DNA of 64,000 bases from Halobaculum sp. MBLA0147 (GTDB taxonomy: Archaea; Halobacteriota; Halobacteria; Halobacteriales; Haloferacaceae), in assembly GCF_041361345.1 (NCBI RefSeq), contig NZ_JBGKAD010000006.1, forward strand, positions 1 through 64,000, written 5' to 3'. Below are positions 22,048 to 62,887 of the stretch, piece after piece. The position numbers and the translations under genes were made by a program. Positions within the stretch are counted from its first letter, which is position 1. Every line of letters begins with the position of its first letter. Below the pieces are notes generated by a model, which ran no database searches, was not told the origin of the DNA, and saw only the letters and a list, made by a program, of their open reading frames with translations.

Positions 22048-22050
22048 TTT

Positions 22051-45800: not shown

Positions 45801-48556
45801 TCCTGGAAGTCCCGACGGAGTTGCTTCATATCGCGCTGGCTGTCGGCGAACGACAGGAGCTTCGTCTCCCGAAGACTCTCCGGGTCGTCCATATCGGCCA
45901 CCGACCGAAGGAGATACTGGCCAGTCGTCACGGCGGTGTTGCCGGGGCCACGCAACAGGCTCTCGTATCGGCGGTCCTTTCGGTAGGAGGTTCTGGAGTG
46001 GTAGCACGGGACTGCTCCAGGGAAGTCTGTCGCGTCCCGAATACGGCCCTGTTCGTCGACCAGTTTGTACTTCTCGAATCCACGAACAGTCGTCGACAGG
46101 TCGGGGTCGTCACAGTCACAGCCGGCACCAGGGAGGCGGTCGGTGTCACACGTCTCGCAGTACTCCACCTCGGTCACGTCCAACAGTCCCGTCCGAACAA
46201 ACCGTCGTTTGCCACAGCTACACGTCGACGGCGGATCACCGAAGTAGACGGCGTCACACTCGGTGTCACCGCAGGCCCACCCGAGATACCGTTTCGGAGT
46301 GAGTTCTCCCCGGCAGTCCTCACGCTGACACGTCGCGCCGTCACCGGACTCGTGTCGTTGCCCGCAACTCGTGCAGTAGACGACCTCGTCGTCTGCCAAG
46401 GGTTCGAGACTCCCCGCCTCGCATGCCGAACACTCCGGGTCGCTCGTCGCCGGTCGGGTCGTTTCACACGCCGGGTTAGTACACGTCAGCGTCTCACCGT
46501 CGTCACGCAACACCATCGCTACGTCGCCGCAGTCTGGACAGGTTTCGACAGTCTGACGATGCTGTCGTTCGCCACAGCCGTTACACTCGTACACCGGCCG
46601 CCACAGTGCCTTGACTGCCGTCACTTCCGTCCCACAGGGGCACTGGTAGTCGTTGAAGTACCGGAACTGTCCCTCGCGGGAGGTGACGTTCACCGGGGCG
46701 AGTCGCTCACAGTCTGGACAGAACCACGACTCGACGGCCTCTTCGCCGCAGTGATTACAGTAGGCGAGCTTCGTGACGAAGTGGTGACCACAGTCTTGGC
46801 AGGCGGATTGTGGTGTGTCGTAGACGGCCGCACACCGGAGACAGGTGTAGTACCCGTCGATGGGCCACGAGAACAAGTGTGCTCGACTCTCCAGAACACC
46901 CGACAGTCGTCCGAGTGTGACGAACACGTCGACAGCCCGATCGGCTGTTGCCTCGTCCACGCCGAACTTCGACGCCACGGACGACACCAGCATCTCCGGT
47001 TCTCGCGGTGATCCGTACAGTTCGGTGTACATCCCCCGAAGAAACGCGACGAGTTCCTGTCCGGGACCGTCGGCGGGTGCTAACAGGTCGTCGTAGAGCG
47101 TCTCGCTCAGCAGGCGCCTGATATCGTCGCTGTCGCTCGCGTCTGTGAGTCGGTCCGGTGTGAGGTGGCGCAGTCGTTTCCGAACTGCGACGCCGAGTGC
47201 GGTCGTCGGTTCGTCCCGACGTACGTCCTCGATCAACTCCTCCTCGTCTGGGACTGCAGTAGTCGCCGACGACGGGAGTTTCTCTGGGAGGGTGGCGTCG
47301 ATCTCTCTCGGTCTCTCGGCGACGATTGTAGGGTCTGCGTCGGTGAACGGCATTATCCGTTGGAACACCTCACGGCGGTTCTCGACGGTCGCGCTCGCGC
47401 CGATCACCGTGAGATCTTCTGGGTGGTCACGGAGCCGTTCCCGTGTCCGGAGGTACCGGCGCATCAGAATTGCCGTGTAGCTGCCGAACAGTTCGTCGTA
47501 CTCGTGGATTTCGTCGAACACGACGTACTTCGGCTGCTCAACGAACACTGCCTGTTCGTCCGTCTCGTTGACGTTGAACAGCCGGTAGTTAACCGTGTCT
47601 GGGTTCGTCAGGACAATGTCCGACTGCTCCGTGACGATCTCCTCGCGGGTCAGGTGGACGTAGTCGAGTGTCACTTCCGGTGCCATCGGCGCGTCGTGGG
47701 TGACGACGTAGCCGTCATCGTCCGTTCGCTCGACCGTCAGCGAGGAGTTACAGTACTCACACGGGCAGTCGAAGAACTGGAACGCCGTCGAGAGGTACTC
47801 GTAGGCGTCCGGTCCGCCAGGCGGCGTGTCACCGTCGAAGATCCCGACAGTAATCAAGTCGTCGCCGGATCGCGTTCGGTTGACCTCGTACAAATACTCG
47901 ATCAGCCGCTTCAATTGGTCTTGTGCCAGCGCCTTCGTCGGGTACGTCAACAGACACTTCGTGCTCTGGGGCGGGTGTGCGGGGTGATCGCCGGCCTTCG
48001 CCTCACAGACAAACTGGAGAGAAGGGACGAGCCAGCTTTCCGTCTTCCCGCGACCCGTGCCGGCGGTGACGAGCGTGTGATCGTCGTCCAGCAGTGCCGA
48101 CACTGTCCGCTCTTGGAAATCAAACAGTTCCGTGAACCCCGCCTCGGTGAACGTCCGGATCACGTCATCGTGGAGTCCGTCTTCCGTCGCCGCAAACGAC
48201 CCGCGTGCCTCGTCTGCGAACGTCTCCCAGGGTGTGTCGCTCCGGCGCGGGAGATCCAACGCCTGGAGATACGGCCCGCGGGTCCGGACGAACGACTCCA
48301 GTCTGTCGGACAACGCCCCGTCGTCGCCACCATCGTACCGGTCAATCAGGCGCTTCAGCGTTCGGCTGTCGCCGCCGGCGACGAGGTGGTGGCCGTACGC
48401 CCGTTTCGTCTCTCTGGCCAGTTCCAGCGTGTCTCCGCCCGTTCCGCCATCCGTTCTCGGGACTCGACTGGCGGTGTGGGTGCAAGCCTCACAGCCGTCG
48501 GCTCTCGTCTCGTCGTGTGCGTCTGGCGTCTCGTCGTCAGGTGTGTGGTCTGTCAT
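42869..48556 (-). CDS. Giant DEAD/DEAH helicase with DUF1998-type zinc C-terminus (paralogue 2)
   Basis: Protein of 1895 residues. Helicase motifs: Q-motif-like FDFQERTVSALL, Walker A AGTGRGKTES (~165-174), YPTKALAQDQL, DEIH in YVVFDEIHEYDEL, and IGASATVENR. Then comes a very long zinc-rich insertion (~600-850) with more than ten CxxC pairs, and motifs V-VI as MEVGMDIGDLDALLLYGTPP and QRVGRAGRE. The C-terminal region contains zinc ribbons and the DUF1998 hallmark GGAGITTLLTRG...CDCESGCPFCLYQYQC. Related proteins (COG1205/MrfA-like, DrmA-DrmB-type) translocate on DNA in repair and defence. It is a clear paralogue of the gene upstream, 33 bp away, and overlaps the PLD gene. Confidence 0.92.
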   Translation of the reverse strand: MTDHTPDDETPDAHDETRADGCEACTHTASRVPRTDGGTGGDTLELARETKRAYGHHLVAGGDSRTLKRLIDRYDGGDDGALSDRLESFVRTRGPYLQALDLPRRSDTPWETFADEARGSFAATEDGLHDDVIRTFTEAGFTELFDFQERTVSALLDDDHTLVTAGTGRGKTESWLVPSLQFVCEAKAGDHPAHPPQSTKCLLTYPTKALAQDQLKRLIEYLYEVNRTRSGDDLITVGIFDGDTPPGGPDAYEYLSTAFQFFDCPCEYCNSSLTVERTDDDGYVVTHDAPMAPEVTLDYVHLTREEIVTEQSDIVLTNPDTVNYRLFNVNETDEQAVFVEQPKYVVFDEIHEYDELFGSYTAILMRRYLRTRERLRDHPEDLTVIGASATVENRREVFQRIMPFTDADPTIVAERPREIDATLPEKLPSSATTAVPDEEELIEDVRRDEPTTALGVAVRKRLRHLTPDRLTDASDSDDIRRLLSETLYDDLLAPADGPGQELVAFLRGMYTELYGSPREPEMLVSSVASKFGVDEATADRAVDVFVTLGRLSGVLESRAHLFSWPIDGYYTCLRCAAVYDTPQSACQDCGHHFVTKLAYCNHCGEEAVESWFCPDCERLAPVNVTSREGQFRYFNDYQCPCGTEVTAVKALWRPVYECNGCGERQHRQTVETCPDCGDVAMVLRDDGETLTCTNPACETTRPATSDPECSACEAGSLEPLADDEVVYCTSCGQRHESGDGATCQREDCRGELTPKRYLGWACGDTECDAVYFGDPPSTCSCGKRRFVRTGLLDVTEVEYCETCDTDRLPGAGCDCDDPDLSTTVRGFEKYKLVDEQGRIRDATDFPGAVPCYHSRTSYRKDRRYESLLRGPGNTAVTTGQYLLRSVADMDDPESLRETKLLSFADSQRDMKQLRRDFQEPEEELFVTQLVVAELDGEGWRTLAELQSAVTARARSVEATLLERETATDELLSEFTQFRQSVESYLEDEVSARVLHGKFGERWRSRVNAVDDGLLDVRLSQNAEPSTADERAVLRAFESQATRSLGTVTDEVDVDGASRIVEELIEDGPLCRVDSDDGYVVELDPTAVEVTIVDEATPTRFDPATETFESTFERQLDDGLDTETVSFTASPFDRAAFDHPHTDLTAFRVAFSEPTLLLAEAYYGQTEAAERRSIEYQFREGRQPHFLSSGPAMEVGMDIGDLDALLLYGTPPNANSYLQRVGRAGRESGSSLVHSVSQRNPIDYYYYERPTELVSADPQPVPLNEANGEVLRVSLTWALLDFLAATRWVPWRRERSGVVDRVVCEDAVVSRSDPRPSEILRLSQLLQASNDAVQGVGDDAPLEVLREVVDANRDEARDWLRDIVGFSRCDRCGRKHADEYRGDCRRGDCDGTAVPVTDDHENVVEAAFEAFETQLVERYIDFEDDLLDELDQIDEELRSLRLSGDGRRRRRRRDGDDDDGDDEATAAERQDRLRARSSHLQGYLDQLEQMDYQSFLERHSTTPFSLRSVSDTVTYDLVGEGFESVRNLQTRDRQIALSELHPGSVYIEPGEGSFVVTEVVPDRVATADAKDDIRDDQICLDCGEVNELDAAACEACGGRLRRLTTIVPQRVTAHKADMTLGTLPNGEKLKPARIHDGDAAGLQSTYAPVDSDVTRFEPTASFDIVDDDGETVGQFDFGDVTILSTTETFRATYAGGGRDPLPNAMEMCGVEDCHGVVARDDDGAYCVRRPEHDTTDTHAVRLAASFDTKGVRVRFDDEAVEHTVAHGIRVGLQYVGGVDVRQIPESIQETGTFVYDAEAGGAGITTLLTRGDGDEYPKFNRAVELMGDNFECDCESGCPFCLYQYQCTTRNDPSSFDVATVRELLADGLTISPVSTRDPVVGGEADNPTDASEGRD

Positions 48557-48589: not shown

Positions 48590-51500
48590 TCAGTCCTGTG
48601 GCGAGTCGTCGTCAACACGTCGGAGTCGTGCTGTTCGGGCGACGCCGGCGGCATCGTCACGAGCGAGTGTCTCCGGTCGGTTGTGGGTGGCACAACCGTA
48701 CTGGAACAGACACCGGGGACACCCCGCCTCACACGAGCAGTCGAACTGGTCAGCGATCATCGCCGTCGCGGTTCGGAAGTTCGGGAAGCCGTTCTCACGC
48801 TCTGTGACGAGTTGGCGGGTCACGTTCGCACCGCCGGGCGTCGCGTCAAACACGTCCGTGTGGTCGTCGTCGACAACCTCCGTCACCTCGCGGATGCCGA
48901 CGCCACCGAGCGACTGGAGCGCGACGCGGAGCCCGTGACCGAAGGCGTGACTCGTAGTCGGATCGTCGACACTCACCCGTACCCCTTCAGTCTCGAAACT
49001 GTACCCTAATCGGAAGAACTCCGAACCAACGTCTCGGGGGTCGTGGTCGGCGTCGGCCGTACAGTGTCCGTGTCCATCGTCGTCGCGGTAGACGATCCCG
49101 TCACAGGTGTCGGCACCGCACACCTCGAAGGGAGTGTTGTCTGCGTCTGCCGCTCCGGACTTGTAGCGGGCTCGGAAGTTGTCCGTGTGCGCGAGCACGG
49201 CGTAGTCGCCGAACGCGATCTGGCCGACGACGCCGTCGTCCGTCACCAACTCGAACGTCTGCCTGGGCTTGAACGACAACACGTCCGTGGTTCGCTCGGC
49301 GAACGTGTTCTGCACTTCCTCATCGGGGCTGTCGTAGACGGCCCGCGCCGGGTCACCGTCTGGACACGTCACGAGATCGTCGCGGTGGGCCTCGACTGCC
49401 TCCAACGAGGCGAGGCGCCGGCGCTTTAGGGGCCGCTCGCTCGTACAGTCGCATGCCGTCGTCCCGACCGGGTGGCTGCTGTTACACCCCGGACAGACGA
49501 GTTCCGTCGCCAGTCGTTCGTTGTCGGTCGCCTCGGCGTGCTGCCTGAGTTCGGAGGACTCGAACTCGTCGAACCTAGCGCGAGTAACGACGTATGTTGT
49601 TCCGTCTTCCAGGTAGGCGGCACCAGGGTGAAGTTCCGACAGTGCCATACGCTCTGAGCGGCCGCCGTAGCCGTCTCCCAGAGCCGTCCGCTCGTAACTG
49701 TCACCATCACGCGTGACGAGCGTGACGCCGACGCTTCCGTCGACGTTCCGCATGTCGAAGGCGAACTTCCCGGTTCGAGATTCCTGGAGGAACTCACCGT
49801 ACTCCAGCCTCTCGATCCGTTCGAGTCGCTCTCGCAAGGCCTGTCGGCGGTCTTTAACCGCGTCGCGTCGTCGTCGGAGGGTCGTCGCCTCGTCACCCGT
49901 CGCTCGTCGTATCTGTTTTCGGAGCGAAGTCGTCTCTCGCTCCAGTTCGGTGAGTTCCGTCTCCAGAGTCGAGCGGTAACGGTCGTACTCGTCGACGAAC
50001 AGTTCGGTGAACTGATCGACGACACGCTCGCGTAGGTCAGCGAACTCCGTGGGGGCGTCGACAATACGACCGTCACAATCGTCGCTGCGACACGTCTCGA
50101 CGAAGTCGTCGCTGTCGTCAGCCGCTTGGTCGCCACGGTCGTACTTTCGAGCACACCGTCGGCAGTAGCGGTATCCCAACACGTCCGCGAGGTGCGACAG
50201 AAGTTCCTCGCGGTGGTCGTCCACGACGGTCGCCAGCGCGGCCACGCCGCGGTCCCGGCTGTCGAGGTCGAGTTCCGACACCGGCAGGGAAAGCAACTGT
50301 GTCAGTTTGGCGTACTCCTCGTCATCAGTGTCATCGCGCCGTCGAAGCACCGTTTCACCGCCAGAGAGTTTCCCGTAACCGCCGGGATACTCCACCTCCC
50401 ACGGGATCACGAACTCGGCGGCGACGTAGTCGAACACTGCCCAAGTGAGTGACACCTCCAGAACGGACTCGTTGTGCTCACTCAGCGGCACTGGCTTCGG
50501 TTCGCTCTCGATCAACTCCGTCGGGTTGTCGTAGTAGTAGAAGTCGATAGGATTGCGCTGGCTGACACTGTGGACGAGCGACGAGCCGGACTCACGCCCG
50601 GCACGTCCGACCCGTTGGAGGTAGGCGTTCACGTTCGGGGGAGTCCCGTACAACAACAGCGCGTCAAGTTCACCGATGTCGACACCAAGTTCCATCGTCG
50701 GCCCAGACGACAGGAAGTGCGGGTGGCTACCGTCACGGAACAGGTATTCCAGTGCCCGTCGGTCACGTTTGTCCGTCAGTCCGTGATAAACACGGCTGAT
50801 GAGAACGCGCGGCGAAGAGGCGACGAGCCGGTAGGCCCGCTGTGTGAACAACGGCTCCGTTGGGTCCGCTCGCTCCGTCAGTGAAACCCCCAACGGGACG
50901 CTCTCGTCGTTCGCCAGCCCGAACTGCCGTTCGAGCGTCGTAGCGAAGGTGTCACCGTCCGGGTCGTACGCTAGTCCGTCGTCCACGCCGGCGACCGTAA
51001 CTTCCAACCCTGACGGGTCAAATCCGACATACTCCTCGTCACGGACGACGAGAACATCGGCGTCCGCCAGCGCAGTCACTACGTCCGTGACACGCTCGCC
51101 GTGACCCGGCGGGTCAATCTGGTCGATGTGACAGCCGTCGCCGGCGTCGACGACATCACGTACCACCGCACGCTCTGCGTCCGATAGGTCTCGGCGACGC
51201 TCCGGCGCAAGGCGCACATCCAACAAGCCGGCCTCTGCCAACGATCCGCCCCGTTCTCGGAGTTGTGGCCGGTAAGCGTGTGGTACCGCTCGGCGGCGGA
51301 GCCGCTCACGGACGGCTGCCGCCGGATCGTCGAACCGGCGATGGACGCGCCCGAGGAGTTCCGGTAGGAGATCGAACGACACGCGGTTGAGACGTGCTGG
51401 CGGATCGAACGCGTCGTCCAACGCCTGGATCACTGACACTGCGCCGTCGACCGTGGCCTCCAACGACTGCCAAGCGCCGTCGACAAAGTCACTTTCCATC

Positions 51501-54160
51501 ACTGGACTGTCGTCGGATTCGTAGGCGCTCGACTGCGTCGGATTACCAATCTCGAAACTGCCAGCGTGGTCGTCGCCCGCCAGGGTGTCGCCGCCTGTCG
51601 CCGTCTCGCCTGCGGCCGCGACCAGCGCCTGGTCTAACACCGTCTCCGCCTCCGGTTCGGAGAAATCCCGGTCCAACTCTTTCATGTCGCGGTGGGAGTC
51701 GGCGAACGCCAGCAGTTTCGCCGCCTGGTTCCCCTCCTCGTCGGCGACCCGTCGGAGGAGGTACTGACTTGTCGTCACTGCGAGGTTGTTCGGCGACCGG
51801 ACGAGTTCGTCGTAGCGGTCGTCCGCGTTGTAGCCGAGTCCGGTGTGACGACAGGCGCTGGCCGTCTCGAATTCGCCTGGGTCGCGGCGCCGGCCGTCGT
51901 CGTCCACGACGGCGAGCCGCCCTTCTGGGGCTGACTCTTGGATGTGCTCGGCGTCGGCTGGCGCACACGCACATTCGCCGTCGACGACCCGCTTGCCACA
52001 CATCCGACAGACTGTCGTTTCGAACGACTCAACGAGACCCGTCTGGACGAACGACCCGTTCCAGCCACACCCACATGTCTCCGGGGGCGTCGTCTGGAAC
52101 AGCCGTCTATCGCAATCGTCGTTGCCACACACCCACGGCCGGAGTCGGTCGTCGTCCGTTCGTCGGAACTTGAGGCGCTCACTCCCACAGGTGCGACACT
52201 GGAGTCCCGGCGTCTCCGTCCGATCACACGTCGGATCACGACAGACGAGCGTGTCGGCGTCCGTTCGAACGAGTCGTGTTCCACAATCACACTCCCTGAC
52301 GAGCCCACGACGCTGGCTCGCGCCACAATCGGTACAGACGTGGATCGGCTGGAAAGTGACGCGGTCGAGTCGCGGGCCGGCCGCTCCTGTCAGCTCCGTC
52401 GTCTCGTCGCCGTCACCACAGTGGGGGCAGTGTGCCTGGTCGCGTCCGTGTGGTGTCCCGTCCTCATTTGGAACGTACGGGGTAAGTTGCCGACAGTCCG
52501 GACACGTCCAAGCGGCGAGGTGTTCCTCGTCGCACCGCCGGCAGTATCGCGCCCGGGTGACGAACCCCTCGTCACACGCCGGACAGTCGTCGTGTGGCGA
52601 TCGGTAGACGGCGTCACAACCGGCGCAGGCGTAGAACCCGTCCAACGGCCAAGTGAATAGGTGGCTCCGCCGCTCCAACAGACCGGAGAACTCACCCAGC
52701 GTCCGAACGTTGGCGACCAGCGTCTCGGTCGCCACTTCGTCGGTGTCGAACCTCTCCGCTACACGGTCGCGGAGTTCTTCGGGTGTCGCTGGGTCCTCAC
52801 GCAGCAAGGCGTGAACCGACTGGATCGCCACGACGCTCTCGGAGGGTGAGTCTGTAGTGGTGAGGTGCTCGAACAGGGCGTCACCAACCACCTCACGGAG
52901 TCGGTCCCGGTCGGCATCCGCCGGCACCGTCGGGTTGAACGTCGGCAGTCCTAGCGGTGATTCTCCCTCCCGAACGGCAGTCAACAGGTCCGTCTCCGTG
53001 AGTCGCTCGTCGGTGAGCGCCGACGGTGCAGTCGTCGTTGCCGGCGGGTCGAGTTCGCGTGGTTGTTCGTCTACGTGCGTAACGTCCGCGCTCCCGGAGA
53101 GTTTCCGGAACAACTCCACGTCGTTGTCGACGGTCGCGCTCGCCGCGATCACCTGGAGTGATGGCCCCTCACGGCGCTCGCGGAGCGTCCGGAGCCGTTT
53201 GGTCAGCGTCGCGGTGTAGCTGCCAAACAGCCCGTCGTAGGTGTGGACCTCGTCGTACACGAGAAACTTCGGCTCGTAGACGAACCGGTCGTGTTCCTCG
53301 CTTGCATTCGTGTTGAGGAGTTTCAGGTTGATCGTGTCCGGGTTCGTCAACAGGATGTCGACTCCCTCGGTCAGGATCTCACGCTTGGTGAGACGGACAA
53401 ACTCCAGCGGCACGTCGTCGATGCAGTTGGCCTTCTCTGGTCGGAGGCGGTAGCCACCCGTCGTCGCCTCGGCGTGGACTCCACGGTCACACGACTGACA
53501 CTTCGCCTGCCGTTCGTCGTAGCCGGGACAGGAGAACTGCTCGAACGTGTCGTTGAGGTACCCCTCTGCGCGCTGGCTCGGGTTCCGTGGCGTGTCGCCG
53601 TCGTAGATCCCGACAGTGATCCGGTAGTCGCTCGGGAGGTCAACGTTGATCCGGTAGAGGTAGCCGAGCAGCCGCTTCAGTTGATCCTGTGCCAGCGCCT
53701 TCGTCGGGTACAGCAACACGGCCTTCACGTCGTCCGGGTGCATCTCCGGATGGTTCCCCCGGTTGGCCTGGACGATCTGGTCCAAGATCGGGATCAGCCA
53801 CGCCTCCGTCTTGCCGCGGCCGGTCGCGGCAGTGACGACCGTGTCGTCGCCCCGCCGGACGGCCTCGACTGTCCGTTCTTGGAAGTCGTACAGCCGGCGG
53901 AACCCGAGATTCTCGAAGGCGAGTCGGACGAGCGGACTCAGTCCGGCCTCGCGGGCGAACGCCGACCACGGCTGGTCGCTCCAGTTTGCCGGCGGTAACG
54001 CCTGGAGATACGGTCCCCGGACTCCCAGGAACGACTCGTCGGTCGCCTCCGTCGCGTCCAGTCGTGCGGCGACACTGCGCGCCGCTGTGCCGGCAGCACC
54101 CAACAGGTGGCTCCGGTAGGCCGCGACCGCCTCACTCGCGCGGGCTGCTGGCTCGTCCAT
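48590..54160 (-). CDS. Giant DEAD/DEAH helicase with DUF1998-type zinc C-terminus (paralogue 1)
   Basis: Protein of 1856 residues with the same plan as the next gene: DFQERTVEAV, Walker A AATGRGKTEA (~111-120), LLYPTKALAQDQLKRLLGYLYRIN, DEVH in FLVYDEVHTYDGL, IAASATVDND, and a zinc-cluster insertion (~520-770, many CxxC and CxC pairs). It continues with LSSGPTMELGVDIGELDALLLYGTPP, QRVGRAGRE, and the terminal GGANVTRQLVTE...CSCEAGCPRCLFQYGC. A charged coiled-coil segment (RSTLETELTELERETTSLRKQIRRATGDEA) lies before the last third. Several stretches (for example SSLVHSVSQRNPID.YYYY) are nearly identical between the two paralogues, indicating duplication with retention of both. The ATG abuts the stop of the coiled-coil gene. 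Confidence 0.92.
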   Translation of the reverse strand: MDEPAARASEAVAAYRSHLLGAAGTAARSVAARLDATEATDESFLGVRGPYLQALPPANWSDQPWSAFAREAGLSPLVRLAFENLGFRRLYDFQERTVEAVRRGDDTVVTAATGRGKTEAWLIPILDQIVQANRGNHPEMHPDDVKAVLLYPTKALAQDQLKRLLGYLYRINVDLPSDYRITVGIYDGDTPRNPSQRAEGYLNDTFEQFSCPGYDERQAKCQSCDRGVHAEATTGGYRLRPEKANCIDDVPLEFVRLTKREILTEGVDILLTNPDTINLKLLNTNASEEHDRFVYEPKFLVYDEVHTYDGLFGSYTATLTKRLRTLRERREGPSLQVIAASATVDNDVELFRKLSGSADVTHVDEQPRELDPPATTTAPSALTDERLTETDLLTAVREGESPLGLPTFNPTVPADADRDRLREVVGDALFEHLTTTDSPSESVVAIQSVHALLREDPATPEELRDRVAERFDTDEVATETLVANVRTLGEFSGLLERRSHLFTWPLDGFYACAGCDAVYRSPHDDCPACDEGFVTRARYCRRCDEEHLAAWTCPDCRQLTPYVPNEDGTPHGRDQAHCPHCGDGDETTELTGAAGPRLDRVTFQPIHVCTDCGASQRRGLVRECDCGTRLVRTDADTLVCRDPTCDRTETPGLQCRTCGSERLKFRRTDDDRLRPWVCGNDDCDRRLFQTTPPETCGCGWNGSFVQTGLVESFETTVCRMCGKRVVDGECACAPADAEHIQESAPEGRLAVVDDDGRRRDPGEFETASACRHTGLGYNADDRYDELVRSPNNLAVTTSQYLLRRVADEEGNQAAKLLAFADSHRDMKELDRDFSEPEAETVLDQALVAAAGETATGGDTLAGDDHAGSFEIGNPTQSSAYESDDSPVMESDFVDGAWQSLEATVDGAVSVIQALDDAFDPPARLNRVSFDLLPELLGRVHRRFDDPAAAVRERLRRRAVPHAYRPQLRERGGSLAEAGLLDVRLAPERRRDLSDAERAVVRDVVDAGDGCHIDQIDPPGHGERVTDVVTALADADVLVVRDEEYVGFDPSGLEVTVAGVDDGLAYDPDGDTFATTLERQFGLANDESVPLGVSLTERADPTEPLFTQRAYRLVASSPRVLISRVYHGLTDKRDRRALEYLFRDGSHPHFLSSGPTMELGVDIGELDALLLYGTPPNVNAYLQRVGRAGRESGSSLVHSVSQRNPIDFYYYDNPTELIESEPKPVPLSEHNESVLEVSLTWAVFDYVAAEFVIPWEVEYPGGYGKLSGGETVLRRRDDTDDEEYAKLTQLLSLPVSELDLDSRDRGVAALATVVDDHREELLSHLADVLGYRYCRRCARKYDRGDQAADDSDDFVETCRSDDCDGRIVDAPTEFADLRERVVDQFTELFVDEYDRYRSTLETELTELERETTSLRKQIRRATGDEATTLRRRRDAVKDRRQALRERLERIERLEYGEFLQESRTGKFAFDMRNVDGSVGVTLVTRDGDSYERTALGDGYGGRSERMALSELHPGAAYLEDGTTYVVTRARFDEFESSELRQHAEATDNERLATELVCPGCNSSHPVGTTACDCTSERPLKRRRLASLEAVEAHRDDLVTCPDGDPARAVYDSPDEEVQNTFAERTTDVLSFKPRQTFELVTDDGVVGQIAFGDYAVLAHTDNFRARYKSGAADADNTPFEVCGADTCDGIVYRDDDGHGHCTADADHDPRDVGSEFFRLGYSFETEGVRVSVDDPTTSHAFGHGLRVALQSLGGVGIREVTEVVDDDHTDVFDATPGGANVTRQLVTERENGFPNFRTATAMIADQFDCSCEAGCPRCLFQYGCATHNRPETLARDDAAGVARTARLRRVDDDSPQD

Positions 54161-54901
54161 TCAGATAGTCAACCCCACGTTCTCGCGCAGGCTCCTGACA
54201 CGGTACAACTCCGCGACGGCATCCGCGTCCGTCGACGACAGCGTGACGTTCTTATCGTCCGCGAGTCGCTGGAGGAGGCGGATCGTCTCATCGGAGAGTC
54301 CGTGGTCTCGCTGGAACGTCTCCCAGTCGACGCCGATCTCTTCCCACTTGGCTTCGAGGCCACTCCACTCTGTCATGAGTCTCCCCGTGTCCTTGCTCAG
54401 CTTCCACGCCTCCTGACTGACGAAGTCTTCCACCTCCTGGGTGAGTTGGATCGCCTCGCTACCTCCGTCCGTAATCCGGATAATCGACTCAGCCGTCGAG
54501 ACCTTGCTCACCCACTTCTTTTGCACGTCACTGAGACGACTCTTCGTGTCGTCGACTGCGCTCTCGACCACATTCTCTACGTCGGAGACCGTCTCTCCCT
54601 CGTCGCTCAGACTTCCCTCGCTGACGGCAGCCAGGATGTCGTCCGAGGTGGTTCCGGTCACGTCACGGAGTCGCGTCCGGACGGTCTCGACTCCCTGAGT
54701 CTCCGCTCGACCGAACACGCCCGTGACGACGGTGTTCCGGTGGACGAGTTCCTCCAGGCTATCTTCCAGACTCGCCATCCGTTCGTTGTGACGTTGGAGG
54801 CGTTCGTCCGCTTGGTCGACGGCCTGCTCCAGTTCCTCGCTGCGTTCGTGGTCGCGGCGCTTCTGTTCGATCTCGTCGATCTTTCGTTCGAGGGCTGACA
54901 T
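54161..54901 (-). CDS. Coiled-coil protein of the large operon
   Basis: Protein of 246 residues beginning with a long coiled coil (KIDEIEQKRRDHERSEELEQAVDQADERLQRHNERMASLEDSLEELVHR, ~5-54). A helical middle follows (DVENVVESAVDDTKSRLSDVQKKWVSKVSTAESIIRI) and a C-terminal domain (~165-246) that may bind a partner. No enzymatic motif. It lies between the ATPase and the helicases with zero-base gaps on both sides (TGA-ATG), so stoichiometric assembly with them is likely. Position and size recall DpdI of Dpd clusters; that comparison is from memory and unproven. Confidence 0.8.
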   Translation of the reverse strand: MSALERKIDEIEQKRRDHERSEELEQAVDQADERLQRHNERMASLEDSLEELVHRNTVVTGVFGRAETQGVETVRTRLRDVTGTTSDDILAAVSEGSLSDEGETVSDVENVVESAVDDTKSRLSDVQKKWVSKVSTAESIIRITDGGSEAIQLTQEVEDFVSQEAWKLSKDTGRLMTEWSGLEAKWEEIGVDWETFQRDHGLSDETIRLLQRLADDKNVTLSSTDADAVAELYRVRSLRENVGLTI

Positions 54902-57900
54902 TCAGAGCTCCTCCGAGAGTGTCTCGATGGTGCTGCGGTGGTTCTGGTACTGTTCGAAAGAGTCGAGTCGACAGACGCGGGCCTCGAACTGCCCGCCGCC
55001 GTCCACATCTACCTCGTCGACGGCGTCGATCATCTCGTCGAGCGCACTGTACACCTCCCAAGCCAGCACGGTCTCGCTGCTCTCCTCGAACTCGTGGAGC
55101 GCGGCGAGTAGCTCGGGCCCGCCGGCCTCCTGAATCCGCTCGAACTGGGTGACGTTCGACCGAAGTCTGTCGAGCCCCAGCGGCTCCGAGCTCATGCCCT
55201 CCAGCGTCGCCTCCCAGTCGGCGAGATCCTGGTTCCCGGCTGCCTGGAGTTCGTCGGCCGCCTCGTAGGCGGTCTCGAACTGTTCGCGGAGCTTGGTCGG
55301 GTCGACGCCCGGCTCGTACCACTGCTCGACGGCCGCCGTTTGCTCGACGATGTGTTCGGCGTGCTCCGAGGGAGACAACGACAGCAGTTCCGTGGCGTAC
55401 TCCCGGATGGCCTCCAGGAACGTGTCGGCCTGGACCGTGCTGTTGGCGGTTCGTGAGGACTTGATCCGGAACGCCTTCGGCAGGTCGCCGGTGTCGATCT
55501 GCATCGCTTCCTCCAGGAACCGGTCGCGGTTCTCCCGGACGGTCTCGACGGCCGACGACAGCCGGTCGCGGTCGATCATCCACTTCTCACGGTCGTCGCT
55601 CCCGCTCCCCTTGAGCAGGAAGAACCGCTTCGCCAACTCCCGTGGCACGCTACTGTGTGTGGTGAGGTCGTTGTACGCCTCACGGAAACTGTTTCGGCGG
55701 CTGAACCGTTGTTTGAGGGGATGGTCGTAGCTCTCCGGCAGTTCATACGCTTTGAACACCATCTCTTCAGTAACCTCGTTGACGCCACGGCCCACGTTCT
55801 GGAGGAGGAACTGCGTGAACACGATCAACTCCTCAACGCCCATCTCGTCGGGGAGACATGCCTCCAGCGTCGACCGCATCTCCACGCGGAAGTCGCCGAC
55901 GGTGTCGTCGGCCCAACCGCGGAGTCGGTCGTAGTCCACTGACACCATCGTCGGGTCCGGCAGTTCTCCGTCGCCGACGCCAGCCCAGAACATCACCTCG
56001 TACAGGTCGTCGTGTTCCGTCCCGAACGGGAGTTCCGTGGATAACGCCGCCTGTGGCGTGTAGGCCCCCTGGAGTCCGATGGGGAGGTGGTCGCCGTGAT
56101 CGTAGTAGATCCCCAGTCCACCGTTCGAGAGCGCGTTCGGGTTCTCCAGTGCCGTCGGGTCGTCGTGGAACCGTCGGAGAACGGACACCGCGCCGTCGAT
56201 CAGCGTGTCGGAACTGTCGTACGCGACGCCCTCGGAGACCCAGTTCTGGTACTCCGACTCACGACGGTTGACCTCGTCCCGCTCTAAACTCGTCTCGACC
56301 GCCAACGGCTCGCGCCCGATTACGCTCAGTTCCGTTCTCGCGGAGAGCTCGGCGTGCTCCGCCTCGTAGACGGCCATGTCACCGTCGTCCGGCACCCGGG
56401 TGGTGACGGTTCCGTCTTCGTCCGTCTCGCCCACTTCGCCGTCGGGGCCGTACACCGTGACAGCCTCGACAGCCTCGCCGTTGTACTTCACCGTCAGAGC
56501 GATCCGGTCACCCGGTTCGACGGTCTCGTTGTCAGTGACGATGTCAAGCGTGTCCTCGGCGATCTCGTACGTCTCAGTGGTCGACAGCCCCTTCTTTTCG
56601 GCAGTGACTGTGATTTCTCCTTCCCTGTCCGGGAGCGACCACTCGAGTTGACCGCGGCCGTCCGACTCGCCGATCACGTCGCCGTTGATGCACAGCCTGA
56701 CGCCCGCGAGCGTGTTCCCCTCAAGTCGGGTCTGGAAGGAGACCGTCTCGCCTGGTGAGCGGACGCCGTCGAGTCCGACCGTGAGTGTCGGATCGAGTCC
56801 GCCAGCGTCGTAGACGATCTGTTCTCCCTGGTCGCCCTCTCGGACCCAGTCGGCGTCGTAGTCGACGCCGAACGCCTCTGCGACCGCGACTGGTACGGCG
56901 ACGTTCCCGTCGATGGTTTTCGTCCCGTACCACTTCGAGAGAAGTTTGTGTTCCCGGTCGTAGTCGATCCGGATGTCGACCGGGAACTCCTTGATGTACG
57001 GGTTCTCCTCGGCGGCGACGAATGGCGGGGTCCGAGAATTGAGACACTCCCGGATCACCCGGATTAGAAGAAGCCGCGGCGTCCGGCGCTCCACGCCCTT
57101 CTGGACGAGGTTGTCGTACGCCCGCTTCACGAACGCGGCGTTGAACGGGTACAGCCTCCGGAACGCGGACTCGTCGACCGGCGCGCTCGCGTTTGACTGC
57201 GCTCGGATCACCGACATGTACTTCCGGACGAGTTCCACCGTCGCCCCCTCGTCTAGGAAGTGTGCGCGGCCACGCTCGTCCGTCGTCGAGAGGTACCCCT
57301 CTGCGCGATCCTTCATATACGTCTGGACCTCCTCAGAGACGCCCAGCGCGCGGTCGAGGTTGTCTTCCTCCCATCCGGTCACCCACCCGAGCACCACGTC
57401 AAAGGCGCCGCTGTCGAGTTGGAACAGGTGATCTAGCAATTGCTCTTTAAGCACGGAGAACGTCGTCAGGTCCTCACAGATCAACACCGGACGCATCCCC
57501 GCCTCGATGTACTGTTCGGACAACTCCTCCAACTTCGCCTGGAAGTCGCCGACACCGAGGTTCTGCGAGAGGATCTGGTGGATCTTGTCCCGGAGCGTCG
57601 GGAAGATGGTGTCGGCGCCGCGTGCGAGACCGAACGCATCGACAGCGAGGTCTCGGTAGTCGTCCTCGGTGAGCAGATCTGGGAACTTCTCTTCCCCCTC
57701 GCTCGTCACGGCCGCCTGGTACTTCTGGATGTTCTCCTCTAAGATGTCCCGCAGTTGTGTGGCGCCCGAGTCGTCGATCAGCGCCCGGAGATCCTCCGCG
57801 TCGACGCTCTGTTGTGTCGGAGCAAAGGCGTCCAGCGTCGAGATGATCGCCTCCGCAACCCGCTCGGGGTCGAGTTCCTTCACGCTGGTCGCCGACACCT

Positions 57901-58330
57901 CCTCGTCCAACGGCTCCGTCAGGATCTCCAGAATGTCCTTGATCCGGGTGTTGCTTCGGGAGACGTGCAGCGCGACGTGTTCGTCGTCGCCGGCGAGCCC
58001 CTCACCGTAGTCGCCGATCTGGTACTCCAGCCACTGGCACAGTTGGCTCTTCCCACTGCCGGTCTCGCCGCGCAGGATGAAGATCCGATTGTCGTCGTCG
58101 ATCTCTGAGCGGAGAATAGCGTCCCTGAACTCCGCTTGTGTGACGAAGTCGTCGGTACCAGGGTGCGGGAACAGGTACTCGGCACGAATCTTGTCGATGT
58201 CGATGTGCGTGTCGACGAACCCCTGGCGGGACTTCTGGTGTGACTCCGGTGTCAGGTACTGTCGGACGACATCGTCGTCCCACGTCACCGGGAACTGTAG
58301 CTCCGTCTGCTCGCGTGTTGACTCACTCAT
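54902..58330 (-). CDS. Large P-loop ATPase with two internal Ig-like domains
   Basis: Protein of 1142 residues. The N-terminal AAA/STAND-like ATPase has Walker A LRGETGSGKSQ (~86-96) and a Walker-B-like VLICEDLTTFSVLKEQLLDHLFQL segment. It ends in a winged-helix-like RLYPFNAAFVKRAYDNL...TPRLLLIRVIREC. Residues ~515-670 switch to beta-sandwich sequence: LTVGLDGVRSPGETVSFQT...LCINGDVIGESDGRGQLEWSLPDREG and TVEPGDRIALTVKYNGEAVEAVTVYGPDGEVGETDEDGTVTTRVPD. These look like two tandem Ig-like or carboxypeptidase-regulatory-like domains. No signal peptide is present, so they act inside the cell, possibly in recognition. The C-terminal half is helical. The start overlaps the previous stop by ATGA. By size and place it corresponds to the ATPase of Dpd-type clusters (DpdH). 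Confidence 0.85.
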   Translation of the reverse strand: MSESTREQTELQFPVTWDDDVVRQYLTPESHQKSRQGFVDTHIDIDKIRAEYLFPHPGTDDFVTQAEFRDAILRSEIDDDNRIFILRGETGSGKSQLCQWLEYQIGDYGEGLAGDDEHVALHVSRSNTRIKDILEILTEPLDEEVSATSVKELDPERVAEAIISTLDAFAPTQQSVDAEDLRALIDDSGATQLRDILEENIQKYQAAVTSEGEEKFPDLLTEDDYRDLAVDAFGLARGADTIFPTLRDKIHQILSQNLGVGDFQAKLEELSEQYIEAGMRPVLICEDLTTFSVLKEQLLDHLFQLDSGAFDVVLGWVTGWEEDNLDRALGVSEEVQTYMKDRAEGYLSTTDERGRAHFLDEGATVELVRKYMSVIRAQSNASAPVDESAFRRLYPFNAAFVKRAYDNLVQKGVERRTPRLLLIRVIRECLNSRTPPFVAAEENPYIKEFPVDIRIDYDREHKLLSKWYGTKTIDGNVAVPVAVAEAFGVDYDADWVREGDQGEQIVYDAGGLDPTLTVGLDGVRSPGETVSFQTRLEGNTLAGVRLCINGDVIGESDGRGQLEWSLPDREGEITVTAEKKGLSTTETYEIAEDTLDIVTDNETVEPGDRIALTVKYNGEAVEAVTVYGPDGEVGETDEDGTVTTRVPDDGDMAVYEAEHAELSARTELSVIGREPLAVETSLERDEVNRRESEYQNWVSEGVAYDSSDTLIDGAVSVLRRFHDDPTALENPNALSNGGLGIYYDHGDHLPIGLQGAYTPQAALSTELPFGTEHDDLYEVMFWAGVGDGELPDPTMVSVDYDRLRGWADDTVGDFRVEMRSTLEACLPDEMGVEELIVFTQFLLQNVGRGVNEVTEEMVFKAYELPESYDHPLKQRFSRRNSFREAYNDLTTHSSVPRELAKRFFLLKGSGSDDREKWMIDRDRLSSAVETVRENRDRFLEEAMQIDTGDLPKAFRIKSSRTANSTVQADTFLEAIREYATELLSLSPSEHAEHIVEQTAAVEQWYEPGVDPTKLREQFETAYEAADELQAAGNQDLADWEATLEGMSSEPLGLDRLRSNVTQFERIQEAGGPELLAALHEFEESSETVLAWEVYSALDEMIDAVDEVDVDGGGQFEARVCRLDSFEQYQNHRSTIETLSEEL

Positions 58331-59217
58331 CTCTGAACAGTTCGCGTGTCTGCGTCCATCGGTAGTCTGTACGCCGGGCGGTCGGGAACCTCGCCGACCG
58401 AGAACGACTTGATCGTTCGACTGTCCACGCTGCTGCCCGATCCCGCGGGCAGATCGACCTCGTTCGAGGCGTCAGCCATCGACCTGAACTTGACGACGCC
58501 GTCCCGTTCCAACGCCGTCAGGACGGCCGCCAGCCCACGGTGGACGACGCTACGGCCGGCGCGACTCGCGTACGCGGGGAGGAACCACTCGTCGATCCAG
58601 TCGAGCGCGTCACGCAGGTCCGTCGAGTCGTGGGTCGCCGCGAACCCGGACAGCAGTTCGGCGACGAGTCCGCGGGCCGGCGCGAGCACCACGCCGTCGT
58701 CGATCTCCGTGACCGCACCCACGCGGCTCATCAGCCGACTCCACATGTTGAGTTTCGTCTCGTTCCACGAGATGTCGTGTGAGAGCCTCCGACTGGCGTC
58801 CGTCTGGAGTTGTGACTTCGTGATCAACTGTGGGTCGCCGGACGACTCGGCGCTCTCGACTGCGACCTCAAACAACCGCGTGAGGTGGTCGCGCGGGCGT
58901 TCCTGACGACGGATCGCGTAGAGGAACCGTGCCTCGAACGACGGATCGTCGTACGGCACGGCGTCACGGTTGAGCGGTCTGACGAGTCGTGCCTCCGGCG
59001 CCGTCAGCATGTCGACGCCCTTTAGAAACTCGACGACAGTCCGGACGTGGTGGTCGTCGTAGCTAGGCTGTTCACTGCCGTCGAACCGTTCGGCCAGATT
59101 CTCGACGAGCGTATCGCTGGCGACGGCGGCGTCAACCGCCCGCAGATCGTCGCCGTAGACGGTCGTCATGTTGACGAGCGTTCTGTTTGGCTTGTCCGAT
59201 GTACGTTCGAAACTCAT
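58327..59217 (-). CDS. Winged-helix-like protein of the large operon
   Basis: Protein of 296 residues. A helical N-terminal part with HHVRTVVEFLKGVDMLTAPEARLVRPLN resembles a winged helix. The middle contains SRRLSHDISWNETKLNMWSRLMSRVGAVTEIDDGVVLAPARGLVAELLSGF, another winged-helix-like unit. The C-terminal third has LAAVLTALERDGVVKFRSMADASNEVDL. Two or three winged helices without catalytic motifs suggest a DNA-binding adaptor for the ATPase, with which it overlaps by 4 nt. It could correspond to DpdG, by position only. An alternative start at the second methionine (MTTVYGDDLRAV) is possible. Confidence 0.75.
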   Translation of the reverse strand: MSFERTSDKPNRTLVNMTTVYGDDLRAVDAAVASDTLVENLAERFDGSEQPSYDDHHVRTVVEFLKGVDMLTAPEARLVRPLNRDAVPYDDPSFEARFLYAIRRQERPRDHLTRLFEVAVESAESSGDPQLITKSQLQTDASRRLSHDISWNETKLNMWSRLMSRVGAVTEIDDGVVLAPARGLVAELLSGFAATHDSTDLRDALDWIDEWFLPAYASRAGRSVVHRGLAAVLTALERDGVVKFRSMADASNEVDLPAGSGSSVDSRTIKSFSVGEVPDRPAYRLPMDADTRTVQR

Positions 59218-59265: not shown

Positions 59266-60135
59266 TCAGCGGTGTTCCCGCGGCAGTTCACGGTAGTCGG
59301 TGAGTCGGTCCAGTTCGAAGTCGACGCGCCGGAGCGTCTCCAGCATCTGATTGGCGACCGTCGTCACCTCGCCTTTCTCCGTCCAAGACCGGAGCGCCTC
59401 CCGGATTCGCTCGGAATAGTCCTCCAAGACGTTCTCCAGGTCGTCTTCAAGGAAGTAGGCGAGCGGGTCCCACACAGGTGAGTCGGCAGGCGCCCGATCG
59501 TAGGCGAACAACTCTTCCAGACTCCGCGGGTTAAGGCCGGCCGCCCGGTGGTGGGCGGCAGCCTCGTGGAAGAAGACATTCCGGGTCGTACTCTGCGCCA
59601 GCGTTGTGTCGACATCGTCAAGATAGCGCTTCGAGAGGGTCTCGTAACTCTTGACAACTACGTCAAACTCGTCGGTGATCGCTTTTCCTGGCTTCGGGGT
59701 GTACGTCGGTGTTCGGGGTGCGACGGTGTCCGTCACTAGGACGTACACTCCCTCTCCCTCGACACTCCGTTCCGTCAACCGTCGGACGAGTTCCTCTTCG
59801 TCGTATTCGTCGATTCCCTCCTGCGTGGCGACGTGGACACACGGCAGCGAGACATCCGCCGGATCCGTGTCGTGGCTCGTCAGCAAATCGTAGTCTGCCA
59901 GCCTGAGTCCGTTATCGTATACGTCCGCGTGAACAACGGTATCTAGACCGAACGTAGTTAGCAGCGGGAGACTCCTGAGTTGTGCTCTGGCTCGCTTTCC
60001 TCGTTCCTCTAATTGTCTGTCCGCGAGAACGACGGTCTCTGTCTTCGTCCCTACGAACTCTGTGAATGTGCGGTCCGTGTTCACGTCTCTTGCCCCCGTG
60101 TCGGACACCTGTACTGCACTGGTCCTATGTGACAT
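59266..60135 (-). CDS. First gene of the large leftward operon, unknown function
   Basis: Protein of 289 residues. The N-terminal half has alternating hydrophobic strands (TETVVLADRQLEERGK, LPLLTTFGLDTVVHADVYDNGLRLADYDLL, GVYVLVTDTVAP) that could be a Rossmann- or nuclease-like fold. The C-terminal half is helical and contains VFFHEAAAHHRAAG, a histidine/glutamate cluster that could bind metal. The second half of HEAAAHH resembles an HExxxH-type zinc site, but spacing is irregular, so no enzyme is claimed. ATG at 60135; 48 bp separate it from the next gene. It is divergent from the CARF-HTH regulator across a 271-bp promoter region. Confidence 0.75.
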   Translation of the reverse strand: MSHRTSAVQVSDTGARDVNTDRTFTEFVGTKTETVVLADRQLEERGKRARAQLRSLPLLTTFGLDTVVHADVYDNGLRLADYDLLTSHDTDPADVSLPCVHVATQEGIDEYDEEELVRRLTERSVEGEGVYVLVTDTVAPRTPTYTPKPGKAITDEFDVVVKSYETLSKRYLDDVDTTLAQSTTRNVFFHEAAAHHRAAGLNPRSLEELFAYDRAPADSPVWDPLAYFLEDDLENVLEDYSERIREALRSWTEKGEVTTVANQMLETLRRVDFELDRLTDYRELPREHR

Positions 60136-60406: not shown

Positions 60407-61051
60407 ATGCAGACGTTTGTCGGTCCGATCGGGTACGACAGCACTCGTGTCACCCGTCCGGTGTTACGACACGGAGTCACGAACGGAGACACAATTCGAC
60501 TCCTTCACCCCGAGCGGCCGGAAGACGACGAAGACGCCAGGGCACAGGAGGCGATCACTGATGTCGAGCGGATGATCGGTGAACTCGAACCGTCGGTGAC
60601 TGTCGAGTCGCTACCGACGCCGACGGATCCGTTCGAGGAGACGCTCGACGAGTGTCTCGGGGCTCTCGATGATGTCGACGGTGAGCTGGTTGTGATCCTC
60701 GGAGGCGGTGTCCGCGAGATTTACTTCCCGCTGGGGCTGGCGGCCGTGACTCGGCAGGAACAGGTAGACGCGACACTCCAGTACAGCGATCTCGACGGGT
60801 CCGTGCAGGAGATCGACTTGCCCCCCGTCGGAACGGACATTGGAGACAGTGTTGAGAGTACCCTGATTGCAATCGTCGACGCCGAGCGTGTCTCTCTCGC
60901 CGATCTCGCTCGGGAACTGGATCCGTCCAAGAGCACCATCTCGCGGCACCTCGACACGCTCGAAGACGCCCACTTCGTGACCACGAGTTACGAAGGGAAG
61001 TCTAAGGTCGTCGAGCCGACGCGACGAGGGAAACTCTACCTCGAGTTCTGA
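60407..61051 (+). CDS. Csa3-like CARF-HTH transcriptional regulator
   Basis: Protein of 214 residues with an N-terminal CARF Rossmann-like domain. The opening MQTFVGPIGYDSTRVTRPVLRHGVTNGDTIRLL matches the first strand-loop-helix of Csa3 proteins. VVILGGGVREIYFPLGLAAV carries the second ligand-pocket loop (GGGVRE). A C-terminal winged helix (RVSLADLARELDPSKSTISRHLDTLEDAHFVTTSYEGKSKVVEPTRRGKLYLEF) is an MarR/ArsR-type DNA reader. CARF domains bind cyclic oligoadenylates made by Cas10 in type III CRISPR; no Cas10 is in the window. The ATG at 60407 matches both the domain start and a TATA-like element; the longer upstream frame is not protein-like. It diverges from the helicase-nuclease operon and probably regulates it, and possibly the CRISPR locus. 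Confidence 0.88.
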   Translation: MQTFVGPIGYDSTRVTRPVLRHGVTNGDTIRLLHPERPEDDEDARAQEAITDVERMIGELEPSVTVESLPTPTDPFEETLDECLGALDDVDGELVVILGGGVREIYFPLGLAAVTRQEQVDATLQYSDLDGSVQEIDLPPVGTDIGDSVESTLIAIVDAERVSLADLARELDPSKSTISRHLDTLEDAHFVTTSYEGKSKVVEPTRRGKLYLEF

Positions 61052-61717: not shown

Positions 61718-62887
61718 TCACATCGTCTCGACGACGAGATCACCGGTTATCTCGGAGTGGTCCTCGTCGACAGCGTTATCCAGTACTCTGCTACAAGCCG
61801 ACAGAACCTGTCTGACGTTCCCCTGTGCTCGTTGCAGGATCGCCGCAAGCGCCTCGTCGGTGAATGGATCGATTTTACCCGTCGGTTTCGCCCGGCCTCG
61901 GTCGAGGTACGCCGTCACAAGCTGGCGGACGTACGCCTCGTCGAGGGGCCGGAGCGCTGCTTCCTCGCCCACCCGCTCGGAGAAAGCGTGGTATTCGGCC
62001 ATCACGTCCTGCCACACTTCGGGTGCACACCCGAACAACAGCGAGAGTCCCTCCGGGTTCCGGTCCATCAGGTGTCTGAGACTGTTCAGCGTCGACTGCT
62101 TCTGTTTTGGCGTCAGACGTGCGATCGACTCGAACTCGTCCACGAAGACGAACACCCCAACGTAACCCAACTCGAGGAGCATCCGCTTGAACGCGGTGAA
62201 CGCCCGGATGCCCATCGAGTCGTCGTCAAGTGAACTGTGAATCTCCATCTCTTTGCGCTGTTCGTACCGGAGCCCCTCTGCAGTGAGCCACTGCCACGCG
62301 TAGAGGTTGGTCTCCTCATAGACGAGGTGGACCACAGCCCGCGCGAAGTCGGCAAACTTCGCGACATCGGTCAGTCGCTGGACGGTCACAGGCACTAGTT
62401 CCGAGAGGAGCACCTCACCCTCATCAAGGAGTGTCTCGAGTGCGTCGCCATCTGGCGGATCGACATCCAGTTCGTCTCGAGCTACGAGTGCGAGGAAGTC
62501 GTACGCCAGTTTCTGAACGGCGTCGAAGCCGAGGTCATACATGAACTCGTGGTACACGTCAAGGAATCCGTCACCAGGCTGTGAGACATACCCAACAACG
62601 ACATCGTCTCGGTCTCGGATTCGAGACCGTGTGTACTTCAGCGTGTGTGACTTCCCGTTCCCGTACTTACCGGTGACTACCAGGTGTTTGGACTTCCCGG
62701 TTCCAAGCACGGTGTTCACCGTGTTCTGGACCGCACTCCGGACGCGCTCCTGCCCGCAGTATACCTCAGGGTCGTCTGCTGGGACGGGACTGTACGGGAA
62801 CGGGTTCTCCGTAAGTCCGAACTGGTCGTAATCGCGGCCACTGTCGTCGAACGTCAAGTCGTCGGAAGGGGTCGGTGTGTCGCTCAT
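61718..62887 (-). CDS. BrxD-like AAA+ ATPase
   Basis: Protein of 389 residues. The N-terminus (YDQFGLTENPFPYSPVPADDPEVYCGQERVRSAVQNTVNTVL) is the usual opening of ORC/ExeA/BrxD-type AAA+ proteins. Walker A VVTGKYGNGKSHT is at about 70-82, Walker B VFVFVDEFESIARL near 249-262, the sensor segment LSLLFGCAPEVW and ALRPLDEAYVRQLVTAYLDRGRAK follow, and the lid closes with AQGNVRQVLSACSRVLD. GKYGNGKSHT is typical of BREX BrxD/DUF2791-like ATPases, which in BREX work with a DNA helicase (BrxHI). Here it could serve the giant helicases of the neighbouring operon. The start overlaps the upstream gene by ATGA. Confidence 0.8.
   Translation of the reverse strand: MSDTPTPSDDLTFDDSGRDYDQFGLTENPFPYSPVPADDPEVYCGQERVRSAVQNTVNTVLGTGKSKHLVVTGKYGNGKSHTLKYTRSRIRDRDDVVVGYVSQPGDGFLDVYHEFMYDLGFDAVQKLAYDFLALVARDELDVDPPDGDALETLLDEGEVLLSELVPVTVQRLTDVAKFADFARAVVHLVYEETNLYAWQWLTAEGLRYEQRKEMEIHSSLDDDSMGIRAFTAFKRMLLELGYVGVFVFVDEFESIARLTPKQKQSTLNSLRHLMDRNPEGLSLLFGCAPEVWQDVMAEYHAFSERVGEEAALRPLDEAYVRQLVTAYLDRGRAKPTGKIDPFTDEALAAILQRAQGNVRQVLSACSRVLDNAVDEDHSEITGDLVVETM

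What the first reader, a model, noticed from the sequence alone, without database searches (positions are those of the whole stretch)
60407..61051. A Csa3-like CARF-HTH sensor without type III CRISPR nearby
The CARF pocket loop (GGGVRE) and winged helix are intact, but the only CRISPR system in view is type I-B, which makes no cyclic oligoadenylate. Either the ligand comes from elsewhere in the cell, or this CARF protein senses another nucleotide made during infection and switches on the divergent helicase-nuclease operon.
Basis: partly seen in the sequence, partly recalled or inferred. Interest (0 to 1): 0.75.

Follow-up and report, generated by a model that had tools for sequence, protein, structure and literature searches.

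The report
CARF switch gene beside BRIGADE defence
In salt-loving archaea, a sensor-switch protein of a kind thought to answer to a CRISPR alarm molecule is repeatedly found beside a different, DNA-base-marking antivirus system, in cells that lack the CRISPR machinery known to make that alarm, so it probably answers to another signal.

Summary
Window 60407-61051 (+) encodes an intact 214-aa Csa3-type CARF-wHTH protein (NCBIfam Csa3 over cut-off; predicted fold matches the cA4-bound Csa3 of S. solfataricus). The divergent operon is the restriction half of a BRIGADE system (two YprA-type helicases, PLD nuclease, DpdH-like ATPase); the DpdA/DpdC-like base-modification half lies on the CARF gene's other side. 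The arrangement is conserved: 28 of 36 haloarchaeal loci with the operon's first gene have the CARF gene divergent to it. None of those 28 genomes has Cmr2- or Csm1-type Cas10, and 27 lack Cas10d, yet pocket residues G9, D11, R14, P35, G99-G101 and R103 are invariant. A shared dyad (ACTGTT-N12-AACAGTA) sits at the CARF promoter in most relatives, suggesting autoregulation; the window copy has no clear match. Best reading: a dedicated BRIGADE transcription switch that does not use type III cyclic oligoadenylate from its own cell. Ligand and direction of control are unknown; Phe14, essential for cA4 in Csa3Sso, is Arg here. New variant of a known kind.

The parts
60407..61051 (+). Csa3-type CARF-wHTH transcription factor, 214 aa
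60136..60406 (.). divergent intergenic region; promoter candidate of CARF with TATA-like GATACAATTT about 30 bp before ATG; the family's dyad operator has no clear match here (best score 6.4 against 15-25 in most relatives)
59266..60135 (-). first gene of divergent operon, 289 aa, no known family; conserved next to CARF
58327..59217 (-). second gene, 296 aa, no known family
54902..58330 (-). DpdH-like ATPase, 1142 aa, Walker A GETGSGKS
54161..54901 (-). coiled-coil protein, 246 aa
   Evidence: coiled-coil families only
48590..54160 (-). YprA-type defence helicase, 1856 aa (DruE/DpdJ-like)
42869..48556 (-). second YprA-type helicase, 1895 aa, 37% identical to the first
40800..42869 (-). PLD-type nuclease candidate, 689 aa, HAKLQ...GSAN motif
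   Evidence: Pfam PLDc_2 E 4e-5, below cut-off
61718..62887 (-). BrxC/BrxD-like ATPase at the start of the modification side, 389 aa
62884..63864 (-). 326-aa protein of the modification side; followed past the window end by a TGT-family protein, a DpdC-like protein and DpdA (contig C6 63861-68164)

Best explanation
The gene encodes a Csa3-type CARF-wHTH transcription factor that belongs to a BRIGADE system rather than to CRISPR. It sits between the restriction half (289-aa protein to PLD nuclease) and the base-modification half (BrxD-like ATPase to DpdA). Most likely a dimer binds operator sites in the divergent intergenic region, controls its own promoter and sets the level of the restriction operon. 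The conserved CARF dimer pocket gates this with a small, probably nucleotide-like ligand that is not made by a Cas10 in the same cell. Shown: fold, pocket conservation, conserved neighbourhood, absence of Cas10 by two type III models, a conserved operator-like dyad at the CARF promoter of most relatives. Inferred: DNA binding, autoregulation, control of the divergent operon. Unknown: the ligand, and whether it is an activator or a repressor.
For: Conserved pairing: 28 of 36 haloarchaeal loci with the 289-aa gene have CARF divergent beside it, in several families. Nineteen CARF genes in 148 genomes: 7 at BRIGADE, 11 at type I-D, 1 at neither. The tree puts the window copy with BRIGADE copies (96/91) and the genome's own I-D paralogue among I-D copies. 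No Cmr2 or Csm1 in the 28 genomes; Cas10d only in the own genome; Cas10d of relatives lacks GGDD. Pocket residues invariant in 27 BRIGADE copies, and 0 of 20,000 random sets of CARF residues as conserved. Dyad ACTGTT-N12-AACAGTA: 18 of 20 representatives at spacer 12, at most 7 at other spacers, mean 0.3 in shuffles; top-scoring site of its 11-20 kb locus in 23 of 24 loci, including 8 I-D ones (the scoring model was built from these sites). DpdA E 8e-72 and DpdC-like E 4e-9.
Against: The window's own intergenic region lacks a convincing dyad, and L131 also lacks it. The dyad lies at the CARF promoter, not at the promoter of the 289-aa gene, so control of the divergent operon is inferred from position; a second dyad in the middle of the region exists in one subclade only. 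Eight related loci lack CARF, so the system can work without it. No binding or expression data. In Csa3Sso, cA4 did not change DNA binding in vitro (PMC8844856 abstract).
Confidence: 0.72

Rival explanations
1. Controller-protein model. The CARF protein works like the C protein of a restriction-modification system: it represses or activates its own promoter and times restriction after modification, with no infection ligand; the pocket is kept for dimer stability.
For: Location between restriction and modification halves; dyad overlapping the likely TATA/BRE of its own gene; several copies on plasmids, where timing after transfer matters.
Against: Residues of the CARF loops that contact cA4 in Csa3Sso (G9, D11, R14, P35, G100, G101, R103) are invariant, more than dimer stability alone would ask; the same family also serves type I-D, which has no modification step.
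Confidence: 0.2
2. The protein senses cyclic oligoadenylate made in trans: by a type III system on an incoming plasmid or virus, or by an unrecognised Cas10-like enzyme.
For: Pocket matches Csa3Sso at G9, Y10, D11, T13, G101 and R103, and Csa3Sso binds cA4.
Against: No Cmr2 or Csm1 over cut-off in 148 family genomes or in the 28 CARF-BRIGADE genomes. Phe14, whose loss abolishes cA4 binding in Csa3Sso, is Arg in all 27 BRIGADE copies.
Confidence: 0.1
3. The ligand is RNA or a metabolite unrelated to CRISPR: RNA ends with 2',3'-cyclic phosphate as for RtcR, c-di-AMP, or a 7-deazaguanine intermediate. This is a sub-case of the best explanation.
For: RtcR shows that a CARF domain can answer to tRNA fragments (PMC7790460); CARF proteins were predicted to sense modified or phage-made nucleotides (PMC4012209); a queD-like gene (preQ0 pathway) lies near the CARF gene in Haloferax alexandrinus.
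Against: No direct evidence for any one of these; c-di-AMP synthase was not searched for here.
Confidence: 0.3
4. Chance neighbour: a CRISPR-associated csa3 that drifted next to a defence island and regulates the CRISPR systems instead.
For: NCBI names these genes csa3 'CRISPR-associated'; the plasmid also carries a type I-B locus.
Against: 28 of 36 loci keep the divergent arrangement across families; the own I-D locus has its own paralogue; BRIGADE copies form their own clades.
Confidence: 0.03

Closest known systems
Csa3 of Saccharolobus solfataricus (SSO1445; 2WTE, 6W11, 6WXQ)
   Same: CARF-wHTH architecture over the full length, same pocket loops, TM-score about 0.78
   Different: 16% identity; Phe14 is Arg; linked to type I-A with type III in the cell, not to a base-modification system
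Csa3-like paralogues at haloarchaeal type I-D loci
   Same: same family, same divergent position, related promoter dyad
   Different: serve a CRISPR system; residue 11 mostly Asn or His instead of Asp
BRIGADE (Bell et al. 2025, PMC12458937)
   Same: haloarchaea, two YprA-type helicases, PLD nuclease, Dpd-like modification genes
   Different: the main text does not mention a CARF regulator (its supplement could not be read)
RtcR and RtcR-like R-M-associated CARF regulators (PMC4012209, PMC7790460)
   Same: CARF-controlled transcription outside CRISPR, some near restriction-modification genes
   Different: sigma-54 AAA+ activators with a divergent CARF, bacterial
MM_0565 of Methanosarcina mazei (PMC7465815)
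   Same: archaeal CARF-wHTH dimer
   Different: beside type I-B CRISPR, in an organism that has a type III-C system

Membership tests
Csa3 CARF-wHTH transcription factors | full-length match to the curated Csa3 model | tested here: met
   TIGR01884 74.9 bits, cut-off 60.2; Csa3_N over cut-off
Csa3 CARF-wHTH transcription factors | CARF and wHTH fold as in Csa3Sso | tested here: met
   Z 19.5 over 206 residues, rmsd 2.9
Csa3 CARF-wHTH transcription factors | cA4 motif residues G9, F/Y10, N/D/H11, G96, R98 (Csa3Sso numbers) | tested here: met
   G9, Y10, D11, G101, R103
Csa3 CARF-wHTH transcription factors that bind cA4 as Csa3Sso does | Phe14, essential for cA4 in Csa3Sso but present in only 6 of 10 homologues | tested here: not met
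   Arg14 in all 27 BRIGADE copies
Csa3 CARF-wHTH transcription factors that bind cA4 as Csa3Sso does | binds cyclic oligoadenylate | not testable with these tools
   needs a binding assay
Type III CRISPR-linked CARF sensor | Cas10 cyclase in the same genome | tested here: not met
   no Cmr2, no Csm1 over cut-off; Cas10d of the I-D loci has no GGDD palm motif
BRIGADE | two YprA-type helicases | tested here: met
   DruE/DpdJ-like matches and CxxC zinc-binding motifs; placement in the published YprA tree was not tested
BRIGADE | PLD or PD-(D/E)xK nuclease | tested here: inconclusive
   PLDc_2 E 4e-5, below cut-off; HAKLQ and GSAN motifs
BRIGADE | 7-deazaguanine modification genes | tested here: met
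   DpdA E 8e-72, DpdC-like E 4e-9, TGT E 9e-28
BRIGADE | halophilic archaea only | tested here: met
   named relatives are all haloarchaea
BRIGADE | subtype I or II | tested here: inconclusive
   both helicases match DruE and DpdJ models best but are only 37% identical to each other
CBASS or Panoptes-type signalling as ligand source | CD-NTase (SMODS) or mCpol in the genome | tested here: not met
   no SMODS in own genome; no mCpol over cut-off in 28 genomes

The most novel reading that the evidence does not exclude
A Csa3-type CARF sensor answers to a nucleotide signal made by a non-CRISPR route, for example a product of viral attack or of deazaguanine DNA modification, and uses it to switch a base-modification restriction system (BRIGADE); the same signal may also control type I-D CRISPR in haloarchaea without type III.
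Probability: 0.35. Interest if true: 0.85.

Novelty: new variant of a known kind. Interest (0 to 1): 0.6.

Why it matters
CARF domains are read almost everywhere as receivers of type III cyclic oligoadenylate. Here a whole branch of the Csa3 family keeps its pocket in genomes that lack type III, beside two different systems (BRIGADE and type I-D). That makes 'what else do CARF domains sense?' directly testable in Haloferax, a genetically tractable archaeon. It would also give BRIGADE, not yet characterised in detail, its first regulator, and suggests that the automatic label 'CRISPR-associated csa3' misleads for this branch.

Tried and rejected
Fold of the 289-aa neighbour: model too poor to search (pLDDT 38), so whether it makes a ligand stays open. 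SMODS as a regular partner: absent in the own genome, and of the seven family members with CARF-BRIGADE only G028 clearly and G121 weakly match. mCpol: two weak hits below cut-off. TIGR02578 hits in most haloarchaea: only the first ~130 positions of the model match, in proteins mostly about 300 aa long, below cut-off, not Cas10. Type I-D Cas10d as source: absent from 27 of 28 genomes, no GGDD. Viral relatives of the CARF: none in IMG/VR or phage records. Window dyad: best slot score 6.4, reached by 21 of 2000 shuffles, so not claimed. A first scan of the paralogue used the wrong strand and was repeated.

Full report
What is there. Window 60407-61051 (+) is an open frame of 214 aa. Pfam, PADLOC and NCBIfam all place it in the Csa3 CARF-wHTH family. 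The predicted structure is confident (pLDDT 91.9) and its best matches among solved structures are the apo and cA4-bound forms of Csa3 from S. solfataricus. A profile of the family aligns with that protein from residue 1 to 205. In this register the window protein has G9, Y10, D11, T13, G100, G101 and R103 where Csa3Sso has G9, F10, N11, T13, M95, G96 and R98. Phe14 of Csa3Sso, needed for cA4 binding (PMC8844856), is Arg14.

What surrounds it. The divergent operon runs from 60135 down to 40800: two proteins without known family (289 and 296 aa), a DpdH-like ATPase, a coiled-coil protein, two YprA-type helicases and a PLD-type nuclease candidate. On the other side of the CARF gene lie a BrxC/D-like ATPase and a 326-aa protein, and beyond the window end a TGT-family protein, a DpdC-like protein and DpdA. 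This set agrees with BRIGADE, described in 2025 as exclusive to halophilic archaea (PMC12458937). That paper's main text does not mention a CARF regulator; its supplement could not be read here.

The pairing is conserved. In 148 genomes of the family, 19 CARF genes of this kind were found: 7 divergent from the BRIGADE operon, 11 at a type I-D cas6d-cas10d operon, one elsewhere. Searching with the 289-aa neighbour over the family and the class gave 36 clear loci; 28 have the CARF gene divergent and adjacent, 8 do not. Named examples include Haloferax gibbonsii, Haloferax alexandrinus, Halorubrum distributum and Halobellus rarus. The own genome holds both versions: BRIGADE on contig C6 and type I-D on contig C1. 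The protein tree puts the window copy in a BRIGADE-only clade (96/91) and the own I-D paralogue among I-D copies; BRIGADE copies form three clades and a single origin is not ruled out.

No known cyclase. Cmr2-type Cas10 is absent from 148 family genomes and from all 28 CARF-BRIGADE genomes. Csm1-type Cas10 gives no match over cut-off in either set. Cas10d occurs in only one of the 28, the own genome, and the palm of seven Cas10d proteins shows no GGDD motif, as the literature on type I-D states (PMC10212523). SMODS cyclases are absent from the own genome and mCpol is below cut-off in all 28. Enzymes outside these models, such as DacZ, were not searched.

The pocket is nonetheless kept. In 27 BRIGADE copies G9, D11, S12, R14, P35, G99, G100, G101, R103 and D128 are invariant; none of 20,000 random sets of CARF residues is as conserved as the ten pocket positions. 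Residue 11 is Asp in all BRIGADE copies and mostly His or Asn in I-D copies.

An operator-like dyad. Between CARF and the divergent gene most relatives carry ACTGTT-N12-AACAGTA 53-61 bp before the CARF start codon. Eighteen of 20 representatives reach 11 of 14 positions at spacer 12, against at most 7 at any other spacer, and 0.3 on average in shuffles. The decamer TGCAACAGTA came out at or near the top of the BRIGADE and I-D sets separately. In 23 of 24 loci the best-scoring site of the whole 11-20 kb stretch lies in this intergenic region; the matrix was built from these sites, so this is a check of specificity, not an independent proof. The position, next to or over the likely TATA box of a leaderless haloarchaeal gene, suggests autoregulation (inference). 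The window copy and one other BRIGADE copy lack a convincing dyad.

Mechanism. Most likely the protein is a dimeric, ligand-gated regulator dedicated to BRIGADE. The ligand is not cOA from a Cas10 of the same cell. RtcR is a precedent for a CARF domain that senses RNA fragments and controls transcription (PMC7790460), and CARF proteins were earlier proposed to sense phage-made nucleotides (PMC4012209). A ligand-free controller model is the main rival. Direction of control and ligand remain open.

Novelty. Csa3 proteins, CARF genes outside CRISPR and BRIGADE are each known. Their conserved union in genomes without type III was not found in the papers that could be read here; the 2020 CARF classification paper was not held.

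Noticed in passing
L039 9004-9639 and 10085-10714 (G124): Two CARF genes in tandem beside cas6d of a type I-D locus; the second is a very long branch in the tree and has GAGATD where the others have GGGxR(E/D).
   Followed up: partly
L049 9788-10168; Halorubrum lacusprofundi plasmid NC_012030.1: CARF gene cut short beside an otherwise intact type I-D operon; an ISH6-like transposase is annotated at the match.
   Followed up: no
L102 7020-7250 and 10001-10420 (Salinibaculum sp. KK48): CARF gene split in two pieces about 2.7 kb apart within a more distant BRIGADE-like locus.
   Followed up: no
L073 9974-10972 (G033): In a close BRIGADE locus without CARF, the slot holds a gene that looks like a TFB transcription factor (zinc ribbon, read by eye).
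   Followed up: no
L036 / L092 (Haloferacaceae archaeon XH8): A CARF relative with neither BRIGADE nor type I-D genes within 10 kb.
   Followed up: no
Haloferax alexandrinus pBNX82-4 (L153): Public annotation calls the DpdH-like ATPase 'S-layer protein' and gives the CARF gene a CRISPR maintenance GO term; a queD-like gene lies between the two halves of the system.
   Followed up: partly
window 19486-25777: Another likely defence operon: large DNA methyltransferase-like protein, 320-aa protein and 931-aa ATPase (read by eye).
   Followed up: no
regions of L130, L132, L136, L145 about 160-173 bp before the CARF start: A second, converging dyad GCAACAGT-N6-ACTGTTGC in one BRIGADE subclade, possibly for the divergent operon.
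   Followed up: partly
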